A stretch of DNA of 35,192 bases from an uncultured Methylococcaceae bacterium (GTDB lineage: Bacteria > Pseudomonadota > Gammaproteobacteria > Methylococcales > Methylococcaceae). The stretch covers positions 1-35,192 of the forward strand of contig CAIWDB010000317.1 in NCBI GenBank assembly GCA_903911305.1, read 5' to 3'. The translations under genes were made by a program, and so were the position numbers. A model generated the notes under the pieces. The model was not told the origin of the DNA, did no database searches, and worked only from the letters and a program-made list of their open reading frames with translations. This document shows positions 27,352 through 34,806 of this stretch, one piece after another (within the stretch, counting starts at the first letter, position 1; each line of letters starts with the position of its first letter).

Positions 27352-28497
27352 TTATTGTTGCCTAAGGTCAAGCTGCGCCAAATCGACTTTTTTGTTGATT
27401 CCACGAAACCTTAAGTAAGCTTTGTATGACAAATGACGCAACAACATGAGAGGCGGCATTTTCAGCCAATGGGAGCGCACGTACAGGAGCCAGCGGGCAA
27501 CGCTTGCCCTGGGCTTAGGATAGTCTGGATGACCCGGCAATAGTGCCAAAGGCACTAGGAAATCCATTAAGGCACGAACCGGCCAATAAGGTCTGGAACC
27601 CCGAATTTCCAGCAGGACGCTTTCGGGTATCTGGGTGGAAAAGAATTGTTGGGCGTATCTCAACCCATAAAACAAGGGCCGGGCCAAGCCCAACTGCTTG
27701 GCGCGGGGAACCAAGCCTTCCCAGAAACCTGGCTCTTGCCCATAATGCTGCAACAAGAGATGTACGTCTAGCAAATCCCTGAGCCGCAAACCTTCAACCG
27801 GATCACCTTCCAGAAACAAATGGACCAAGGAATGCAGCACCATATCGGCTGGACACAGGACTTTTAGCTGTGAATTTGCCAATGGGCAGGCATCGCCTAT
27901 CATCAATGCGGGATCGGGCTTCAGCCGGCTGGTCCTAGGCAGAATCCGATGATGTATGTCAATTTCCGTGCCGCGTTCGCGATGGCGTAACGGCGGGATT
28001 TCATGCATCCAAACTCGATAATAGCGGTCATCATAAGGATCAAGCTGCATCTTATACCATCCTTTGGAGACTAACTTCTCCTCTATCTCACTCACATTCC
28101 CCTCTGGCGTCAGCAAATCGACATCGGCAAACAACCTCCCCGGTGCAGGGGGAAGGCCGGCCATCATGTAGGCAGCGCCTTTGAGCAATATAATCGGAAC
28201 GTCCGTGCCTTTTAACGCCCAAAGAATACGATTGATTTCCCAAGTCACCAAAGTTTTACGATGCTGGATGACATTGCGGGATGCCCGCAAGTGATCCGCA
28301 GCTTTTGCAGGAATTTTGTCTAGCAAACCCGCCGATGAGAGGTCGGCTTCCAATCTGCCGAGCAGCCTGACACGGCGGGCGACGCGAATCAGCAATTCCC
28401 AATCGGCATTCGACAGCATGGGTAGTTGTTCGGGCGAGCGAATGGCTTCAAGCAACAATTCGTTTGCCCTTAAAGTTTGTTGGCTATTTTCACCCAT
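27352..28497 (-). CDS. Nucleotidyltransferase family protein (NTP_transf_5-like)
   Basis: VPIILLKGAAYMMAGLPPAPGRLFADVDLLTPEG; position downstream of HprK-related kinase and PqqD-like genes. Confidence 0.85.
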   Translation of the reverse strand: MGENSQQTLRANELLLEAIRSPEQLPMLSNADWELLIRVARRVRLLGRLEADLSSAGLLDKIPAKAADHLRASRNVIQHRKTLVTWEINRILWALKGTDVPIILLKGAAYMMAGLPPAPGRLFADVDLLTPEGNVSEIEEKLVSKGWYKMQLDPYDDRYYRVWMHEIPPLRHRERGTEIDIHHRILPRTSRLKPDPALMIGDACPLANSQLKVLCPADMVLHSLVHLFLEGDPVEGLRLRDLLDVHLLLQHYGQEPGFWEGLVPRAKQLGLARPLFYGLRYAQQFFSTQIPESVLLEIRGSRPYWPVRALMDFLVPLALLPGHPDYPKPRASVARWLLYVRSHWLKMPPLMLLRHLSYKAYLRFRGINKKVDLAQLDLRQQ

Positions 28498-29407
28498 GGT
28501 TGGAACGTGTCAATTCGTCTATGGCGGTGACGGCTTGATTCAAATCGGAATAGACTAAGGAATAACAATCGCAGTCTTTTACCATATCGGTGACAAGTCG
28601 AAAGGCGGTTTGATCCAGCACTTCATAATTGAAGGCATTGGTTGCCACCATCAGGAAAGCTTGGCTTTTGGGGATAGGCTCCAAGCTCAGCGGTGCATTG
28701 GCGACCCAACGCGGGAAGATTAACCACCGTGGTTTAGCCGGTTCGTCCATGCGATGAATACTATCCTCTGGCGGTATGACATGGGCCACCGTGCCTTTAC
28801 GGGTTTTGAAGAACGAAGGGCCGATGACCGCTTCCGGGCAAAACTGTCGGATCACGTCTATGGATTCGTTCTTCAAAGGAATTAACCGGGGTATTGGCAA
28901 CAACACCCCATCTTCGGGCCGCACCAAGCCAAACTCGTCGGATAATAAACGCCAACCGGAAAAGACTAACGCGGCACAAAGGGTTGATTTGCCATGGCCC
29001 GGCCAAGCAGGAAATAAGATGGCGTGACCGTTACGTTCGACCACCGCCGAATGTAGCATTAACAAGTGGTGGGCGCGGGTGGCGATGCACCAGTTGATGC
29101 CCCATTCTAAGGCAGGGAAAGCGTGTTCGATGGCGTAGGGGGCAAAAGGTTGTCCACCGTCTATCGAAAAAACCGCTTGCCTTCGATACCAATGGCGCAA
29201 TCCTCTTGGATAAGCAATTTTAATATGCAAATCACTGATGCTATCTTGTCGAACGACTGGATAAAAATGATAAAGCTGGCTGAGCAGCGGAACTAGGCTA
29301 GCAATGTTGGAAAATATTCGGATCTGGAATGGCCCTAGTTGGACATTAAACTCGCTGCTTTTCAGTAGCCGCTTTATCTGTACAGCAGTGCAGTCGTTTA
29401 CCCTCAT
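28490..29407 (-). CDS. HprK-related kinase A family protein
   Basis: Walker A-like FPAWPGHGKSTLCAALVFSGWRLLSDEFGLV; HPr kinase-like organisation; overlaps neighbours by a few nt. Confidence 0.85.
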   Translation of the reverse strand: MRVNDCTAVQIKRLLKSSEFNVQLGPFQIRIFSNIASLVPLLSQLYHFYPVVRQDSISDLHIKIAYPRGLRHWYRRQAVFSIDGGQPFAPYAIEHAFPALEWGINWCIATRAHHLLMLHSAVVERNGHAILFPAWPGHGKSTLCAALVFSGWRLLSDEFGLVRPEDGVLLPIPRLIPLKNESIDVIRQFCPEAVIGPSFFKTRKGTVAHVIPPEDSIHRMDEPAKPRWLIFPRWVANAPLSLEPIPKSQAFLMVATNAFNYEVLDQTAFRLVTDMVKDCDCYSLVYSDLNQAVTAIDELTRSNHG

Positions 29408-29727
29408 AGACTCGCGCTGATGCCATCTACCCGATCAATCAAACCCAATTCCTCCAATCTGTTAATCCAAAAATCCAAGGCCTCAGGAATGATCTTTTCA
29501 CCCACTTGTTCAAATTCCATGTCAATTAGCTTGCCTAGTGTTTCCAAACCAACGGGTTCCTGTGCTAAACGCTCAAGTATGAAAGCAGATATTTCGTTTA
29601 TGAAATGGGTTTCAGCCGATGACGGTTGAAATAAAACAAATGCATCATCCCATTTTTGCCATAGCAATTCTTGTCCCGAGTCAGTCAAACAAAAGCGATC
29701 CAAGCTTTCGCCGTGACTTTGGGCCAT
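29404..29727 (-). CDS. PqqD-like peptide chaperone (HPr-rel-A system type)
   Basis: Small PqqD-like protein WDDAFVLFQPSSAETHFINEISAFILERLAQEPVGLETLGKLI; start MAQSHGES at 29727 preferred. Confidence 0.75.
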   Translation of the reverse strand: MAQSHGESLDRFCLTDSGQELLWQKWDDAFVLFQPSSAETHFINEISAFILERLAQEPVGLETLGKLIDMEFEQVGEKIIPEALDFWINRLEELGLIDRVDGISASL

Positions 29728-29734
29728 ATAAAAC

Positions 29735-30208
29735 TTAAAGCAGCGAATTGTAGGCAGATATACTGAGAAGTGCAATTGATGGTTCGTTTTTTATAGCACC
29801 AGACTTCGATGATGTGGTTGAGCAATAGAATCCTCCATCATTAATTACTTTAAGATTTGTGGTTTTAGTACCACCTAAAATTTGCAAATCAGGCAAAGGG
29901 CAGCCAGATTGGCTGTATCCGGTGACACAATTATCACCGACAACGATTGAGCCACCTGTACTAGTTTTGGTTAGTAGACCATCATTATTATCTGCTGACG
30001 CACGCGCCGAAACGCCGGTGCAAGAAGACGCTGCCAATCCACCACTCCGTAAAGTCAACACCACCGGAGCTATCCCCGCTGCCCCACGAATTAGCCGACG
30101 ACGACGCAAATCGGGCCCTTGCGCATCAGCAAGGCTTGCCTCAGAGCTTGTGGTAGATTCTGTAAGCGGAAGAACTTCCGTTTTTTCAATTGATTTTCCA
30201 TCGTTCAT
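29735..30208 (-). CDS. Small Tat-like signal protein, candidate substrate of the HPr-rel-A cassette
   Basis: DLRRRRLIRGAAGIAPVVLTLRSGGLAASSCTG...; short, Ser/Thr/Gly/Asn-rich mature part with Cys residues; first gene of the operon. Confidence 0.65.
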   Translation of the reverse strand: MNDGKSIEKTEVLPLTESTTSSEASLADAQGPDLRRRRLIRGAAGIAPVVLTLRSGGLAASSCTGVSARASADNNDGLLTKTSTGGSIVVGDNCVTGYSQSGCPLPDLQILGGTKTTNLKVINDGGFYCSTTSSKSGAIKNEPSIALLSISAYNSLL

Positions 30209-30469: not shown

Positions 30470-30826
30470 ATGCAAAGCAACCAAATACTCACGCTAGCCT
30501 TGTCCGCACTGGACGACGGCAAAGGCAACGATATCAAAGTCATTGATGTAAGAGAAAAAACCAATATCACCGATTATATGGTGATTGCCAGCGGCACGTC
30601 TGACCGGCACGTGGTATCCCTCGCCGACCGTGTCGTGGAACGCATGAAGGAAAACCACCTGACACCCATAGGGGTGGAAGGCCAAAACACCGGGGAATGG
30701 GTTTTGGTTGACCTTGGCGATGCGATTATCCATGTCATGAAACCGCAGACTCGCGAATTTTATCAGTTGGAAAAACTATGGCAAGGGGATTTCAGCCATC
30801 CGTCGGCGATATTTGCAAGCCATTGA
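30470..30826 (+). CDS. rsfS: Ribosomal silencing factor RsfS
   Basis: KVIDVREKTNITDYMVIASGTSDRHV...VEGQNTGEWVLVDLGDAIIHVMKPQTREFYQLEKLW. Confidence 0.95.
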   Translation: MQSNQILTLALSALDDGKGNDIKVIDVREKTNITDYMVIASGTSDRHVVSLADRVVERMKENHLTPIGVEGQNTGEWVLVDLGDAIIHVMKPQTREFYQLEKLWQGDFSHPSAIFASH

Positions 30827-30965: not shown

Positions 30966-31820
30966 TCAGCCCATCGGATGCATCACAATCTCAACATCGC
31001 CATCCAACCATCGCTCCTGAACCAAACCCGCTTGATGATGTTCGATCATCGCCCAAAGTTCACGGATCAAAGCATTTTGGCTGTTCCGCAAGGCTTGTTC
31101 CGAACCCGGCCGCTGCTTGCGGTATAACTCCAGGCTCCCATTCTGTAGCAATGCGTCAAGTTTAGTCAATGATGGGGCCAACACGCCAACCACCCCCGGC
31201 AAAGATTGGGCGATGACCAAACCCGCCGGGTCAATGTCCACCAGTGCCAGCACCGACAATTGATGTGATTTAATAAAGGCCATCACATCATTTGCGCGGC
31301 TGGCATTCGGATCGCCTCGATAGACAATAACGGGATTGACGGCCAGTCCAAACTCAATTTGATGGATTCGGTCAAAACACTCGTAATTTTCAACCACCAA
31401 GGCTGCGTCATGACCCAGATCAACTATTGTTTCATGGGCGATGTCTAGGTGGCTACGTTCTGGCAATGATATGTGCTTTCCGTTAACAACCAGCAAATGG
31501 TCAGGAAGCGATTTGAGCAATATCCGGCCCGAGGCAACCGCCTTGCCAGCCCACTTTTCTTGTCGGCTTTTTTGCAAGGACTCATGCCGGTTCATGCTTG
31601 AAAATTCCGCCATGGAGCCGGTGCGCACATCCACGCCTTCCATTTTCAAAACCAGTTCAGCCAATTCAGTCTTGTCCTGAGCAGAAATACGAATTTTCGT
31701 ACCCAACGGGGAACCCACGTTAAATTCACGGTGCAGGGCTTGCCAACTGGCGTTGTAAAGAAATAATTCCCGGTCGGATTGCACAGCGCGCTGAATGAAA
31801 GCCACCAGCCGCTTATCCAT
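30966..31820 (-). CDS. Toprim-like protein (JetD/MksG-like)
   Basis: ALVVENYECFDRI, NPVIVYRGDPNASRANDV, LALVDIDPAGLVIAQSL: conserved Glu then DxD-like Toprim pattern as in DUF2220/JetD. Confidence 0.65.
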   Translation of the reverse strand: MDKRLVAFIQRAVQSDRELFLYNASWQALHREFNVGSPLGTKIRISAQDKTELAELVLKMEGVDVRTGSMAEFSSMNRHESLQKSRQEKWAGKAVASGRILLKSLPDHLLVVNGKHISLPERSHLDIAHETIVDLGHDAALVVENYECFDRIHQIEFGLAVNPVIVYRGDPNASRANDVMAFIKSHQLSVLALVDIDPAGLVIAQSLPGVVGVLAPSLTKLDALLQNGSLELYRKQRPGSEQALRNSQNALIRELWAMIEHHQAGLVQERWLDGDVEIVMHPMG

Positions 31821-33042
31821 GTTGTTTGGGGCGATACATGAGGCGCAAATCTTTAACTCTTAGATTGCCAGTGAATCCATTGGCATCCCAACTGACAAAC
31901 TCAAAATCGTAGCCCTGTTGTTGGGCCTTGCGGCGTATCCCCTCCCCTAACACGCAACTTAACCAGACAGCTTCGGCTATCTCAATGGCATGTAACCGCC
32001 GAAATGCCAACGCCGAAACCCCATGCCCCGGCAATTTTTTGGCATGATCGAACAAGCCGCCTAGGTGTTGGCGATACAAGGGCTGTTCGACCCGGATGGC
32101 CGGCCGACGAACCAAGCTGACGCTATTAATCCGCCGTTGTGGTTGCCTTGCCAGCAATGCCGCGTTATCAATTTTCACCTTGTGGGCAATCTCAATCAGT
32201 TCTGCCTCCATGGCATGGGACACGGTGTCCGGGTGAGCCTTGAAGCTCAAACCTTGAACCCGATTCCACTGGCTCGGTATGTGTTCCTGCTCGCTCCACT
32301 CTTTGGGAATATAATCGGGGTTTTGCCGGAGGAAAAATGCAAATCCTCTGACCAACTTAGCCCGTACTTCAATTTGGCGCAATTGGAACAGAAACGTCTT
32401 TAAGGTGTCGAGAATGTCTTGCAAACGTTGCCGGTGGGTAGGCAAATTGCGCACCAATTGGCGTTCAATCAGCGCCTGCATCCCCTCATGGTCTTCGGCC
32501 AATTCTAAAAGCAGAGTCGGTTGCAAATTGCTGACTGCACTGACCAATTTCTCCAAACGCCCAATGTAGAAAATATTTTGGCGTTTTTTTTCTGACAAGC
32601 TACGCACATTGGCAAAGCGGCTATTGACCAACATTAACAGATAGGTGGTGTTTTCTTCCAAGGTGTCGGACAGGTCAAACACCAGTCGTTCGACCTCCGC
32701 CAAATAGGCATCGCAATCTTCCAGCCTGTCTTCACTGAAAGCATCACAGTACAAAGCGATTTGCTGTTCCAGCAAGTCCACCCAACTGCCAAGGTCAGTG
32801 TCCAAGCGACGCATCCGGTCACTATTGAGCGCCCCATCCAAAAATTGGCTCAACCGAGCCGACAGTCGGAAATTTTGACTGCCGGAATTGGCAAGGACTT
32901 TCAGTTGCTTGAGTTGATTCAGCGCCCGTTGGTTGGTTTCACACAGCGCCACACTGCCGCCGAAATATGCCTCGGCCACAATATCGCTATGTTGGGCCAT
33001 CGCTTGAAATAAGCGATGCAAGCTGGTCTTGTCGTTGCTCAA
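31813..33042 (-). CDS. Helical kleisin-like (MksF-like) protein
   Basis: 409 aa, predominantly helical, wedged between MksE-like and Toprim ORFs with overlaps at both ends. Confidence 0.45.
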   Translation of the reverse strand: MSNDKTSLHRLFQAMAQHSDIVAEAYFGGSVALCETNQRALNQLKQLKVLANSGSQNFRLSARLSQFLDGALNSDRMRRLDTDLGSWVDLLEQQIALYCDAFSEDRLEDCDAYLAEVERLVFDLSDTLEENTTYLLMLVNSRFANVRSLSEKKRQNIFYIGRLEKLVSAVSNLQPTLLLELAEDHEGMQALIERQLVRNLPTHRQRLQDILDTLKTFLFQLRQIEVRAKLVRGFAFFLRQNPDYIPKEWSEQEHIPSQWNRVQGLSFKAHPDTVSHAMEAELIEIAHKVKIDNAALLARQPQRRINSVSLVRRPAIRVEQPLYRQHLGGLFDHAKKLPGHGVSALAFRRLHAIEIAEAVWLSCVLGEGIRRKAQQQGYDFEFVSWDANGFTGNLRVKDLRLMYRPKQHG

Positions 33043-33695
33043 AACAATTCCACCTGTTGCGGTTCTTCTTCCTGCTGATCCAACGGCAATTCTTCATGCT
33101 CTTGGATGAATTGCAAAGCTTGGAGAAAATAATCGAGTTTGCCGGTCGCTTGGTAAATTTCAGGGTCTCGGCTAACCATTTTTAGATACCCCCAAGCACT
33201 CAGCGTCTTGAGCAGTTTGGTCAATCGCCCCTTGGAGGTGTCTTCAGAACTGAGAAAGTCTTTGAAACGGGCAAAACCTTGCAAACGATCCGCCAAGGCT
33301 TGATTGTTTTCAATTTGTTGCAACAAGCCCGAAAATGAAATCGTATCACCGGGGTGTATGGCGGTGTCTTGATGTAGGCATTGCATCATCATATCCAGCC
33401 ATTCCACCACCGGTTGCAGTTCCCATTTGAATTGTTGAAACAATCGGCGGATTTCTGCACGTGCCTCGGTGTCAACTTGACGGTAAGCGGCGAAGTAAGC
33501 GAGGTGGTTTTGCGTAGCCGAAAGTGTATAACCCAGCCGAGCCAAGAATTCCTCCACCTCCCGGCGATGCTCAGGCGATTTTAAGTGACGGAAACACTGT
33601 TCGGCGGAAACCTCGCAGATGAACTCGCCCTGCAACAAGCGTTTGACGGTGGATTCGAACATGAGTGGATAACCATTAGACATTCCGGCAACCAT
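33039..33695 (-). CDS. MksE/JetB-like condensin accessory protein
   Basis: YPLMFESTVKRLLQGEFICEVSAEQCFRHL...LAYFAAYRQVDTEARAEIRRLFQQFKWELQPVVEWLDMMMQ...GDTISFSGLLQQIENNQAL...TKLLKTLSAWGYLK...YQATGKLDYF resembles MksE. ATG at 33695 with AAGGAAC. Confidence 0.6.
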   Translation of the reverse strand: MVAGMSNGYPLMFESTVKRLLQGEFICEVSAEQCFRHLKSPEHRREVEEFLARLGYTLSATQNHLAYFAAYRQVDTEARAEIRRLFQQFKWELQPVVEWLDMMMQCLHQDTAIHPGDTISFSGLLQQIENNQALADRLQGFARFKDFLSSEDTSKGRLTKLLKTLSAWGYLKMVSRDPEIYQATGKLDYFLQALQFIQEHEELPLDQQEEEPQQVELF

Positions 33696-33789
33696 TTTAC
33701 CTGTTCCTTTTGGTATTTGCGCAAGTGGCAAAGATTAAACCCAGCGTCTATGATGTGCGTTCAACACTCACGCATTCAGGAGAACACCG

Positions 33790-34806
33790 ATGACTACAGC
33801 AAACACATTGCGTTTTGGCATACTCGGGGCAGCCCGTATCAATGAACGCATGATTCCCACCATTATCCAAGCAGCCAACGCCGAACTGGTCGCCATTGCC
33901 AGCCGCAGGCCCGGTGCCGCTGCCGAAACCTTGGCGAAATATGCCCCGAATCAACAAGGTGTGCGGACTTATGACAACCTCGATGCGCTGATTGAAGACG
34001 CTGAAGTTCAGGCAGTCTATCTGCCCATGTCCAATCACGAGCATGAGGAATGGGCTTTGCGTGCCATTCGGGCGGGTAAGCATGTGCTGGTGGAAAAACC
34101 CATGGCCTTGACCGTGCTGGATATTGAAGCCATTGAATATGCAGCGAAAGAACATCATGTGACGGTCATGGAGGGGTTCATGTACCGCTTCCATCCGCAA
34201 CACGCACGGGTGCGCGAATTGATTGATTCAGGGATTATTGGGGAAGTCCGCTCGGTACGCTCTAGTTATTCGTTTATCATGCGCCCTGCCCGCTTATATC
34301 GGCTGGCCGAAGACGTGTCCAAGGGCGGTGGGGCGATGTGGGACATCGGACCTTATGCGATACATTCCGCCCGCTGGTGTTTCGACGTGCCGCCGGTGGC
34401 AGTGACGGCCATCGCCAAATTTGTGGAGAGCGGCGCAGACATCACCACCAGTGGCGTGATTGATTTTGGCGAGGGCAAACACGCACATTTCGATGTCAGT
34501 TTTGAATGGGCACGGCAATCCATTTATGAAGTCACCGGGACCAAAGGCGGAATCAAATGCCATGCCGCATGGCGCTTGCCCGAAGACGTGCCGGTGATTT
34601 CGTGGTGGACCGAAGACGGCAAAGGCGGCGAAGAAAAATTGCCTATGGCTGACCATTTTGTGTTGGAGATCGAGCATTTCAGCGATTGCGTGTTGAACGG
34701 CAAGACACCTTTGCTCAGTTTTGAAGATGCCAAAGCCAACTGTCGGACAATAGAAGCCATATTGCAATCGGCAGCAACGGGGCAAGCGGTGTTGTTGGAG
34801 GCTTGA
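33790..34806 (+). CDS. Gfo/Idh/MocA family NAD(P)-dependent oxidoreductase
   Basis: RFGILGAARINERMIPTI; VYLPMSNHEHEEWALRAIRAGKHVLVEKPMALT; VMEGFMYRFHPQHARVRELI; GGGAMWDIGPYAIHSARW. Confidence 0.96.
   Translation: MTTANTLRFGILGAARINERMIPTIIQAANAELVAIASRRPGAAAETLAKYAPNQQGVRTYDNLDALIEDAEVQAVYLPMSNHEHEEWALRAIRAGKHVLVEKPMALTVLDIEAIEYAAKEHHVTVMEGFMYRFHPQHARVRELIDSGIIGEVRSVRSSYSFIMRPARLYRLAEDVSKGGGAMWDIGPYAIHSARWCFDVPPVAVTAIAKFVESGADITTSGVIDFGEGKHAHFDVSFEWARQSIYEVTGTKGGIKCHAAWRLPEDVPVISWWTEDGKGGEEKLPMADHFVLEIEHFSDCVLNGKTPLLSFEDAKANCRTIEAILQSAATGQAVLLEA

What the first reader, a model, noticed from the sequence alone, without database searches (positions are those of the whole stretch)
30966..33695. 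MksE / kleisin-like / Toprim operon apparently lacking its SMC subunit
Three overlapping minus-strand genes look like MksE (JetB-like), a helical MksF/kleisin-like protein and a JetD/MksG-like Toprim protein. Wadjet/MksBEFG systems need a large SMC ATPase (JetC/MksB), but none is encoded in the window, and the upstream neighbour is a divergent Gfo/Idh gene. It could be a minimal or trans-acting Wadjet variant, or a different Toprim system.
Basis: partly seen in the sequence, partly recalled or inferred. Interest (0 to 1): 0.7.

Follow-up and report, generated by a model that had tools for sequence, protein, structure and literature searches.

The report
Split SMC plasmid-defence operon in methanotroph
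A four-part DNA-looping and DNA-cutting machine of the Wadjet/MksBEFG kind, whose genes sit in one operon in related methane-eating bacteria, is broken in two in this genome: the three genes here lack their motor gene next door because the intact motor gene sits alone at a separate locus.

Summary
Three overlapping minus-strand genes encode MksE (Pfam E 2.8e-11), an unannotated protein that folds like the MukF/JetA kleisin, and a DUF7281 Toprim protein (E 7.9e-23) with the Topo VI/JetD-type acidic residues. No SMC gene is in the window. The SMC is not missing from the genome, however. The same assembly holds exactly one DUF3584 SMC ATPase, an intact 1,212-codon gene alone on contig C70 with no E, F or G nearby. 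It is the cognate partner: SMC and kleisin trees both place this genome as sister to Methylococcus sp. STC_26 with full support. In relatives the genes form one operon, SMC-MksE-kleisin-DUF7281, with an 8-bp SMC stop/mksE start overlap in 20 of 20 checked. Here the operon is cut at that junction. The trio lies between rsfS and Gfo/Idh, which are neighbours in five same-genus genomes. The SMC lies upstream of a conserved transglutaminase gene. The overlapping SMC stop in mksE is mutated away and the SMC has gained its own stop. This makes an assembly artefact unlikely. I read it as a complete, dispersed Wadjet/MksBEFG-like system with its SMC supplied in trans. Anti-plasmid function is inferred, not shown.

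The parts
33039..33662 (-). mksE (KITE subunit, JetB/MukE-like), 207 aa; most likely start is the ATG at 33662, which aligns with the start in homologues (ORF open to TTG at 33731)
   Evidence: Pfam MksE 2.8e-11; 60-73% identity to clade-A homologues of 207-208 aa
31813..33042 (-). kleisin (MksF/JetA/MukF-like), 409 aa
   Evidence: N-terminal winged helix, long helical bundle and C-terminal winged helix in the model; MukF is the best PDB fold match; always between mksE and the DUF7281 gene in relatives
30966..31820 (-). DUF7281 Toprim protein (JetD/MksG position), 284 aa; family-invariant E144 and D195/D197
   Evidence: Pfam DUF7281 7.9e-23, JetD_C 0.025, TOP6A-Spo11 Toprim 6.6e-4; alignment of 21 homologues; Topo VI-A by profile
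33663..33789 (.). 127-bp region between mksE and Gfo/Idh that replaces the SMC gene; no SMC remnant in any frame; mksE starts ATGTTCGA instead of the ATGTTTGA that carries the SMC stop in relatives
30470..30826 (+). rsfS, left flank of the insertion; next to Gfo/Idh without the trio in five same-genus genomes
33790..34806 (+). Gfo/Idh-family oxidoreductase, right flank of the insertion

Best explanation
The trio is the mksE-mksF-nuclease part of a complete, four-subunit Wadjet/MksBEFG-like complex whose operon has been broken at the mksB/mksE junction. The motor subunit, a DUF3584-family SMC ATPase, is encoded alone at a second locus (G000:C70:5750-9388) and is supplied in trans. Expected mechanism, inferred from Wadjet and MksBEFG work: two SMC dimers are joined by the kleisin and KITE subunits and extrude DNA loops. 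On small closed-circular DNA, total extrusion stalls the motors and switches on the Toprim nuclease, which cuts the plasmid. Shown here: gene identities, operon organisation in relatives, the one-to-one complement in this genome, and the break. Inferred: complex assembly from two loci, loop extrusion and plasmid cleavage.
For: The own genome has exactly one match each for MksE, the kleisin, DUF7281 and the DUF3584 SMC. The SMC ORF is intact over 1,212 codons (DUF3584 E 4e-208), and Walker A (GVNGAGKTT), signature (SSHGLSYL) and Walker B (WPMDEL) motifs lie in columns that are invariant or nearly so in the family. The SMC is 59% identical to that of Methylococcus sp. STC_26 and 43-47% to other clade-A SMCs; the kleisin is 67% against 51-55%. 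Trees of SMC and kleisin agree (100/100), with mirror correlation 0.94. In relatives the order is SMC-E-F-DUF7281: in 23 of 26 named loci the SMC abuts mksE, two are cut by contig ends whose mate contigs show the abutment, and one has an insertion. The 8-bp stop/start overlap is present in 20 of 20 intact operons and destroyed here.
Against: No experimental data exist for this clade. The SMC's last roughly 15 residues are replaced by a short unrelated tail, which might weaken it. No close relative shares the split, so selection after the split cannot be measured. Only one assembly (661 contigs) was available. Most divergence from relatives predates the split, so intact ORFs do not prove the system is active today.
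Confidence: 0.7

Rival explanations
1. Decaying system: the operon was broken, function was lost, and both parts are drifting.
For: SMC C-terminal tail altered. Short SMC N-terminal fragments without full-length partners occur in three other Methylococcales genomes (G109, G140, G117). The nuclease diverges fastest (34-43% identity).
Against: All four ORFs are full length, about 6.3 kb in all with no frameshift or internal stop, and family-invariant catalytic residues are kept. Base composition matches the neighbouring genes.
Confidence: 0.2
2. Assembly artefact: the operon is intact in the cell and the contigs were misjoined.
For: The assembly is fragmented (661 contigs, 2.95% contamination) and nearly all relatives have the intact operon.
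Against: The artefact needs two independent misjoins. C317 is collinear with same-genus genomes on both sides of the trio (rsfS and Gfo/Idh, 83-92% identity). C70 matches them from 20-25 bp after the SMC stop onwards and up to about 300 bp before the SMC start. The two contigs share no significant repeat. The mksE start no longer encodes the SMC stop, and the SMC has a new in-frame TAA.
Confidence: 0.05
3. The trio works without an SMC, as a minimal or different Toprim system, and the C70 SMC is an unrelated orphan.
For: No SMC next to the trio. Published C. glutamicum MksG cuts DNA without MksBEF in vitro (PMC10123090).
Against: The C70 SMC is the sister of the SMC that belongs to the sister kleisin, is the only such SMC in the genome, and has no other E or F partner.
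Confidence: 0.05

Closest known systems
Wadjet (JetABCD) / MksBEFG anti-plasmid systems (types I-III)
   Same: SMC ATPase + KITE + kleisin + Toprim nuclease with Topo VI-like acidic residues
   Different: Gene order SMC-E-F-G rather than the published mksFEBG; nuclease is 284 aa with DUF7281 instead of DUF3322/DUF2220; kleisin matches no Pfam or PADLOC family and the other subunits match PADLOC Jet models only weakly; SMC encoded at a second locus
DUF3584-MksE-kleisin-DUF7281 operons of Methylococcales, with similar four-gene sets on large proteobacterial plasmids
   Same: Same four genes; this is the family the trio belongs to (plasmid copies by kleisin match and gene layout)
   Different: There the SMC overlaps mksE in one operon (8 bp in the clade-A operons checked); here it is at a separate locus
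MukBEF / MksBEF condensins
   Same: MksE and MukF-like kleisin folds, MukB-like SMC
   Different: They lack the Toprim nuclease gene and act in chromosome organisation

Membership tests
Wadjet / MksBEFG | SMC ATPase subunit (JetC/MksB) with Walker A, signature and Walker B motifs | tested here: met
   Present in the same genome at C70, not in the window; DUF3584 E 4e-208, motifs in conserved columns
Wadjet / MksBEFG | KITE subunit (JetB/MksE) | tested here: met
   Pfam MksE 2.8e-11; PADLOC JetB1 9.4e-4
Wadjet / MksBEFG | Kleisin subunit (JetA/MksF) | tested here: met
   MukF and Wadjet-II JetA among top PDB fold matches (E 6e-4 to 6e-3) with two winged-helix ends; no sequence-family match, low TM-scores
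Wadjet / MksBEFG | Toprim nuclease subunit (JetD/MksG) with metal-binding acidic residues | tested here: met
   PADLOC JetD 2.4e-5, Topo VI-A profile match 0.0033, invariant E144, D195, D197; cleavage itself not tested
Wadjet / MksBEFG | All four genes co-located in one operon | tested here: not met
   Met in relatives but broken in this genome
Wadjet types I-III as modelled by PADLOC | Clear match to type-specific JetA-D models | tested here: not met
   Only weak matches for B, C and D, none for the kleisin
Wadjet / MksBEFG | Restriction of small circular plasmids | not testable with these tools
   Needs a transformation or plasmid-stability assay

The most novel reading that the evidence does not exclude
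The separation of the SMC motor from its kleisin-KITE-nuclease module is functional: independent expression of the two loci controls when the nuclease is armed, so a Wadjet-type machine can be regulated by supply of its parts from two loci.
Probability: 0.12. Interest if true: 0.65.

Novelty: new variant of a known kind. Interest (0 to 1): 0.45.

Why it matters
Defence-system finders look for co-located genes, so a Wadjet-like system split over two loci would be missed or called incomplete, and this family is hardly recognised even when intact (two plasmid copies are annotated only as 'ATP-binding protein' and 'hypothetical protein'). The split gives a natural test of whether the SMC motor and the nuclease module need coupled expression. 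The family itself, present in a fifth of the Methylococcales genomes searched (62 of 311 have a match to the SMC), is a little-characterised branch of SMC-based systems.

Tried and rejected
(1) SMC remnant upstream of mksE in the window: none in any frame. (2) Shared repeats at the two loci that could explain relocation or misassembly: no significant match between contigs, and no clear long repeats at the ends. (3) A second MksE, kleisin or DUF3584 SMC in the genome: none. (4) A second full relocation: only G648 (also listed as G151) departs; there an AAA_15 ATPase follows the SMC and an AAA_15 + DUF3226 pair precedes mksE, so this looks like an insertion at the same junction, on two contigs. 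(5) Promoter scan at both loci: nothing on the coding strand upstream of mksE or mksB. (6) Phmmer of single proteins against the PDB gave no useful hit; the SMC profile gave none at E 0.001. (7) Literature: no paper in the library names DUF7281, and none holds both 'Wadjet' and 'Methylococcales'.

Full report
What is there. The window is one whole contig (C317, 35,192 bp) of a 5.84-Mb genome in 661 contigs. Named relatives carrying the family are nearly all Methylococcales, so the host is taken to be a Methylococcales bacterium. Three overlapping minus-strand genes lie at 30966-33662. Reading along their strand, the first product matches Pfam MksE (2.8e-11) and the third matches DUF7281 (7.9e-23), with weaker similarity to the Topo VI/Spo11 Toprim domain and JetD_C. 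The middle product matches no family. A model built on 23 homologues (mean pLDDT 73) has a winged helix at each end and a long helical bundle between them. Its best PDB matches are MukF chains and the Wadjet-II JetA kleisin. TM-scores are low because of flexible segments, so the kleisin call rests on fold ranking, gene position and domain layout together. The Toprim family keeps an invariant glutamate (E144) and a D-x-D motif (D195, D197), like the metal-binding residues described for MksG and Topo VI (PMC10123090).

Is the SMC really missing? It is absent from the window but present in the genome. A search with the SMC of a related operon found one full-length SMC at C70:5753-9316. The Pfam DUF3584 model finds the same single gene. 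The genome has one kleisin, one MksE, one DUF7281 gene and one DUF3584 SMC, a complete one-to-one set on two contigs. Around the SMC are a CheB-CheR-PAS gene, a PAS gene, a predicted transglutaminase and a malic-enzyme-like gene (the last two named by eye), with no E, F or G.

Is it the right SMC? In relatives the four genes stand in the order SMC, mksE, kleisin, DUF7281. Of 26 named loci, 23 show the SMC directly upstream of mksE. Two are cut by contig ends whose mate contigs show the same arrangement. One (L114) carries foreign genes at the junction. An order-wide search found an SMC match in 62 of 311 genomes; of the 28 relatives' SMC loci inspected, 27 have mksE directly after it, and the exception is the genome of L114 again (these overlap in part with the 26). 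SMC and kleisin trees both place this genome as sister to Methylococcus sp. STC_26 with full support, and pairwise distances of the two proteins correlate at 0.94. The simplest reading is that the window trio and the C70 SMC descend from one operon.

Is the split real? In five same-genus genomes rsfS and Gfo/Idh are neighbours without the trio, so the trio sits in an otherwise conserved stretch. On C70 the sequence from 20-25 bp after the SMC stop onwards matches the region upstream of the transglutaminase gene in two same-genus genomes at about 81%. The left side matches relatives up to about 300 bp before the SMC start. Whether those two flanks abut each other in relatives is not shown, because their contigs end there. 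In 20 of 20 intact operons the SMC stop overlaps the mksE start as [A/G]TGTTTGA. Here mksE begins ATGTTCGA, which no longer holds that stop, and the SMC ends in its own TAA after a replaced tail. These changes fit genes that have lived apart for some time; a simple misjoin would not produce them.

How it probably works. By analogy with Wadjet and MksBEFG (PMC10586767; PMC10123090), the SMC-kleisin-KITE complex extrudes DNA and the Toprim subunit cuts small circular DNA once extrusion is complete. Supplying the SMC from another locus is not a mechanistic obstacle, since smc and scpAB are usually unlinked (general knowledge). None of this has been tested for this clade.

Position relative to known systems. 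All four subunit types of Wadjet/MksBEFG are present, but PADLOC type I-III models match only weakly and the kleisin not at all. The published mks operon order is mksFEBG with a DUF3322/DUF2220 nuclease (PMC10123090), which differs from this family. A similar four-gene layout around a kleisin homologue occurs on plasmids of Aromatoleum aromaticum EbN1 (207 kb) and Pseudomonas sp. FeN3W (910 kb), annotated only as ATP-binding protein and hypothetical proteins. I file the trio as part of a dispersed member of a divergent, little-annotated Wadjet-like family: a new variant of a known kind.

Limits. There is one assembly, no reads, no strain-level relatives and no experiment. Activity today is likely but unproven; decay after the split is the main rival.

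Noticed in passing
L114 (1-1416) and L127 (49-963), genome G648/G151: In another Methylococcales genome the same mksB/mksE junction is interrupted: an AAA_15 (OLD-like) ATPase follows mksB and an AAA_15 + DUF3226 pair precedes mksE, on two contigs. The junction may be a recurrent insertion point.
   Followed up: partly
L009 (G030), L004/L010 (G003), L005/L011 (G006): A different Wadjet-like operon with a distant DUF7281-type nuclease. In G030 it is a 423-aa protein, a 192-aa protein, a 918-aa SMC-like ATPase and the nuclease. In same-genus G003 and G006 related nuclease genes were found, neighbours not examined fully.
   Followed up: partly
G109:C300:1554-1730, G140:C109:87997-88224, G117:C19:47794-48066: Short N-terminal fragments (59-91 aa) of the same SMC in three other Methylococcales genomes; they may be remnants of lost systems.
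   Followed up: partly
window 27352-30208: HPr-rel-A peptide cassette: nucleotidyltransferase (NTP_transf_5), HprK-related kinase A (TIGR04352, 1.8e-120), PqqD-related protein (TIGR04353) and a short possible precursor gene; the last two are much less conserved among same-genus genomes than the first two.
   Followed up: partly
L135, L136 (G291, G498): Related SMC-MksE-kleisin sets in another gammaproteobacterial family show no recognisable DUF7281 gene in the 0.8-1.4 kb held downstream; they may be condensin-like versions without nuclease.
   Followed up: no
L174 (761-2793) and L175 (6994-8697): In two same-genus genomes the site corresponding to C70:5361 carries a possible IS element with a gene of about 561-567 codons, and the contigs end nearby, so the region upstream of the orphan SMC may be an insertion hotspot.
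   Followed up: partly
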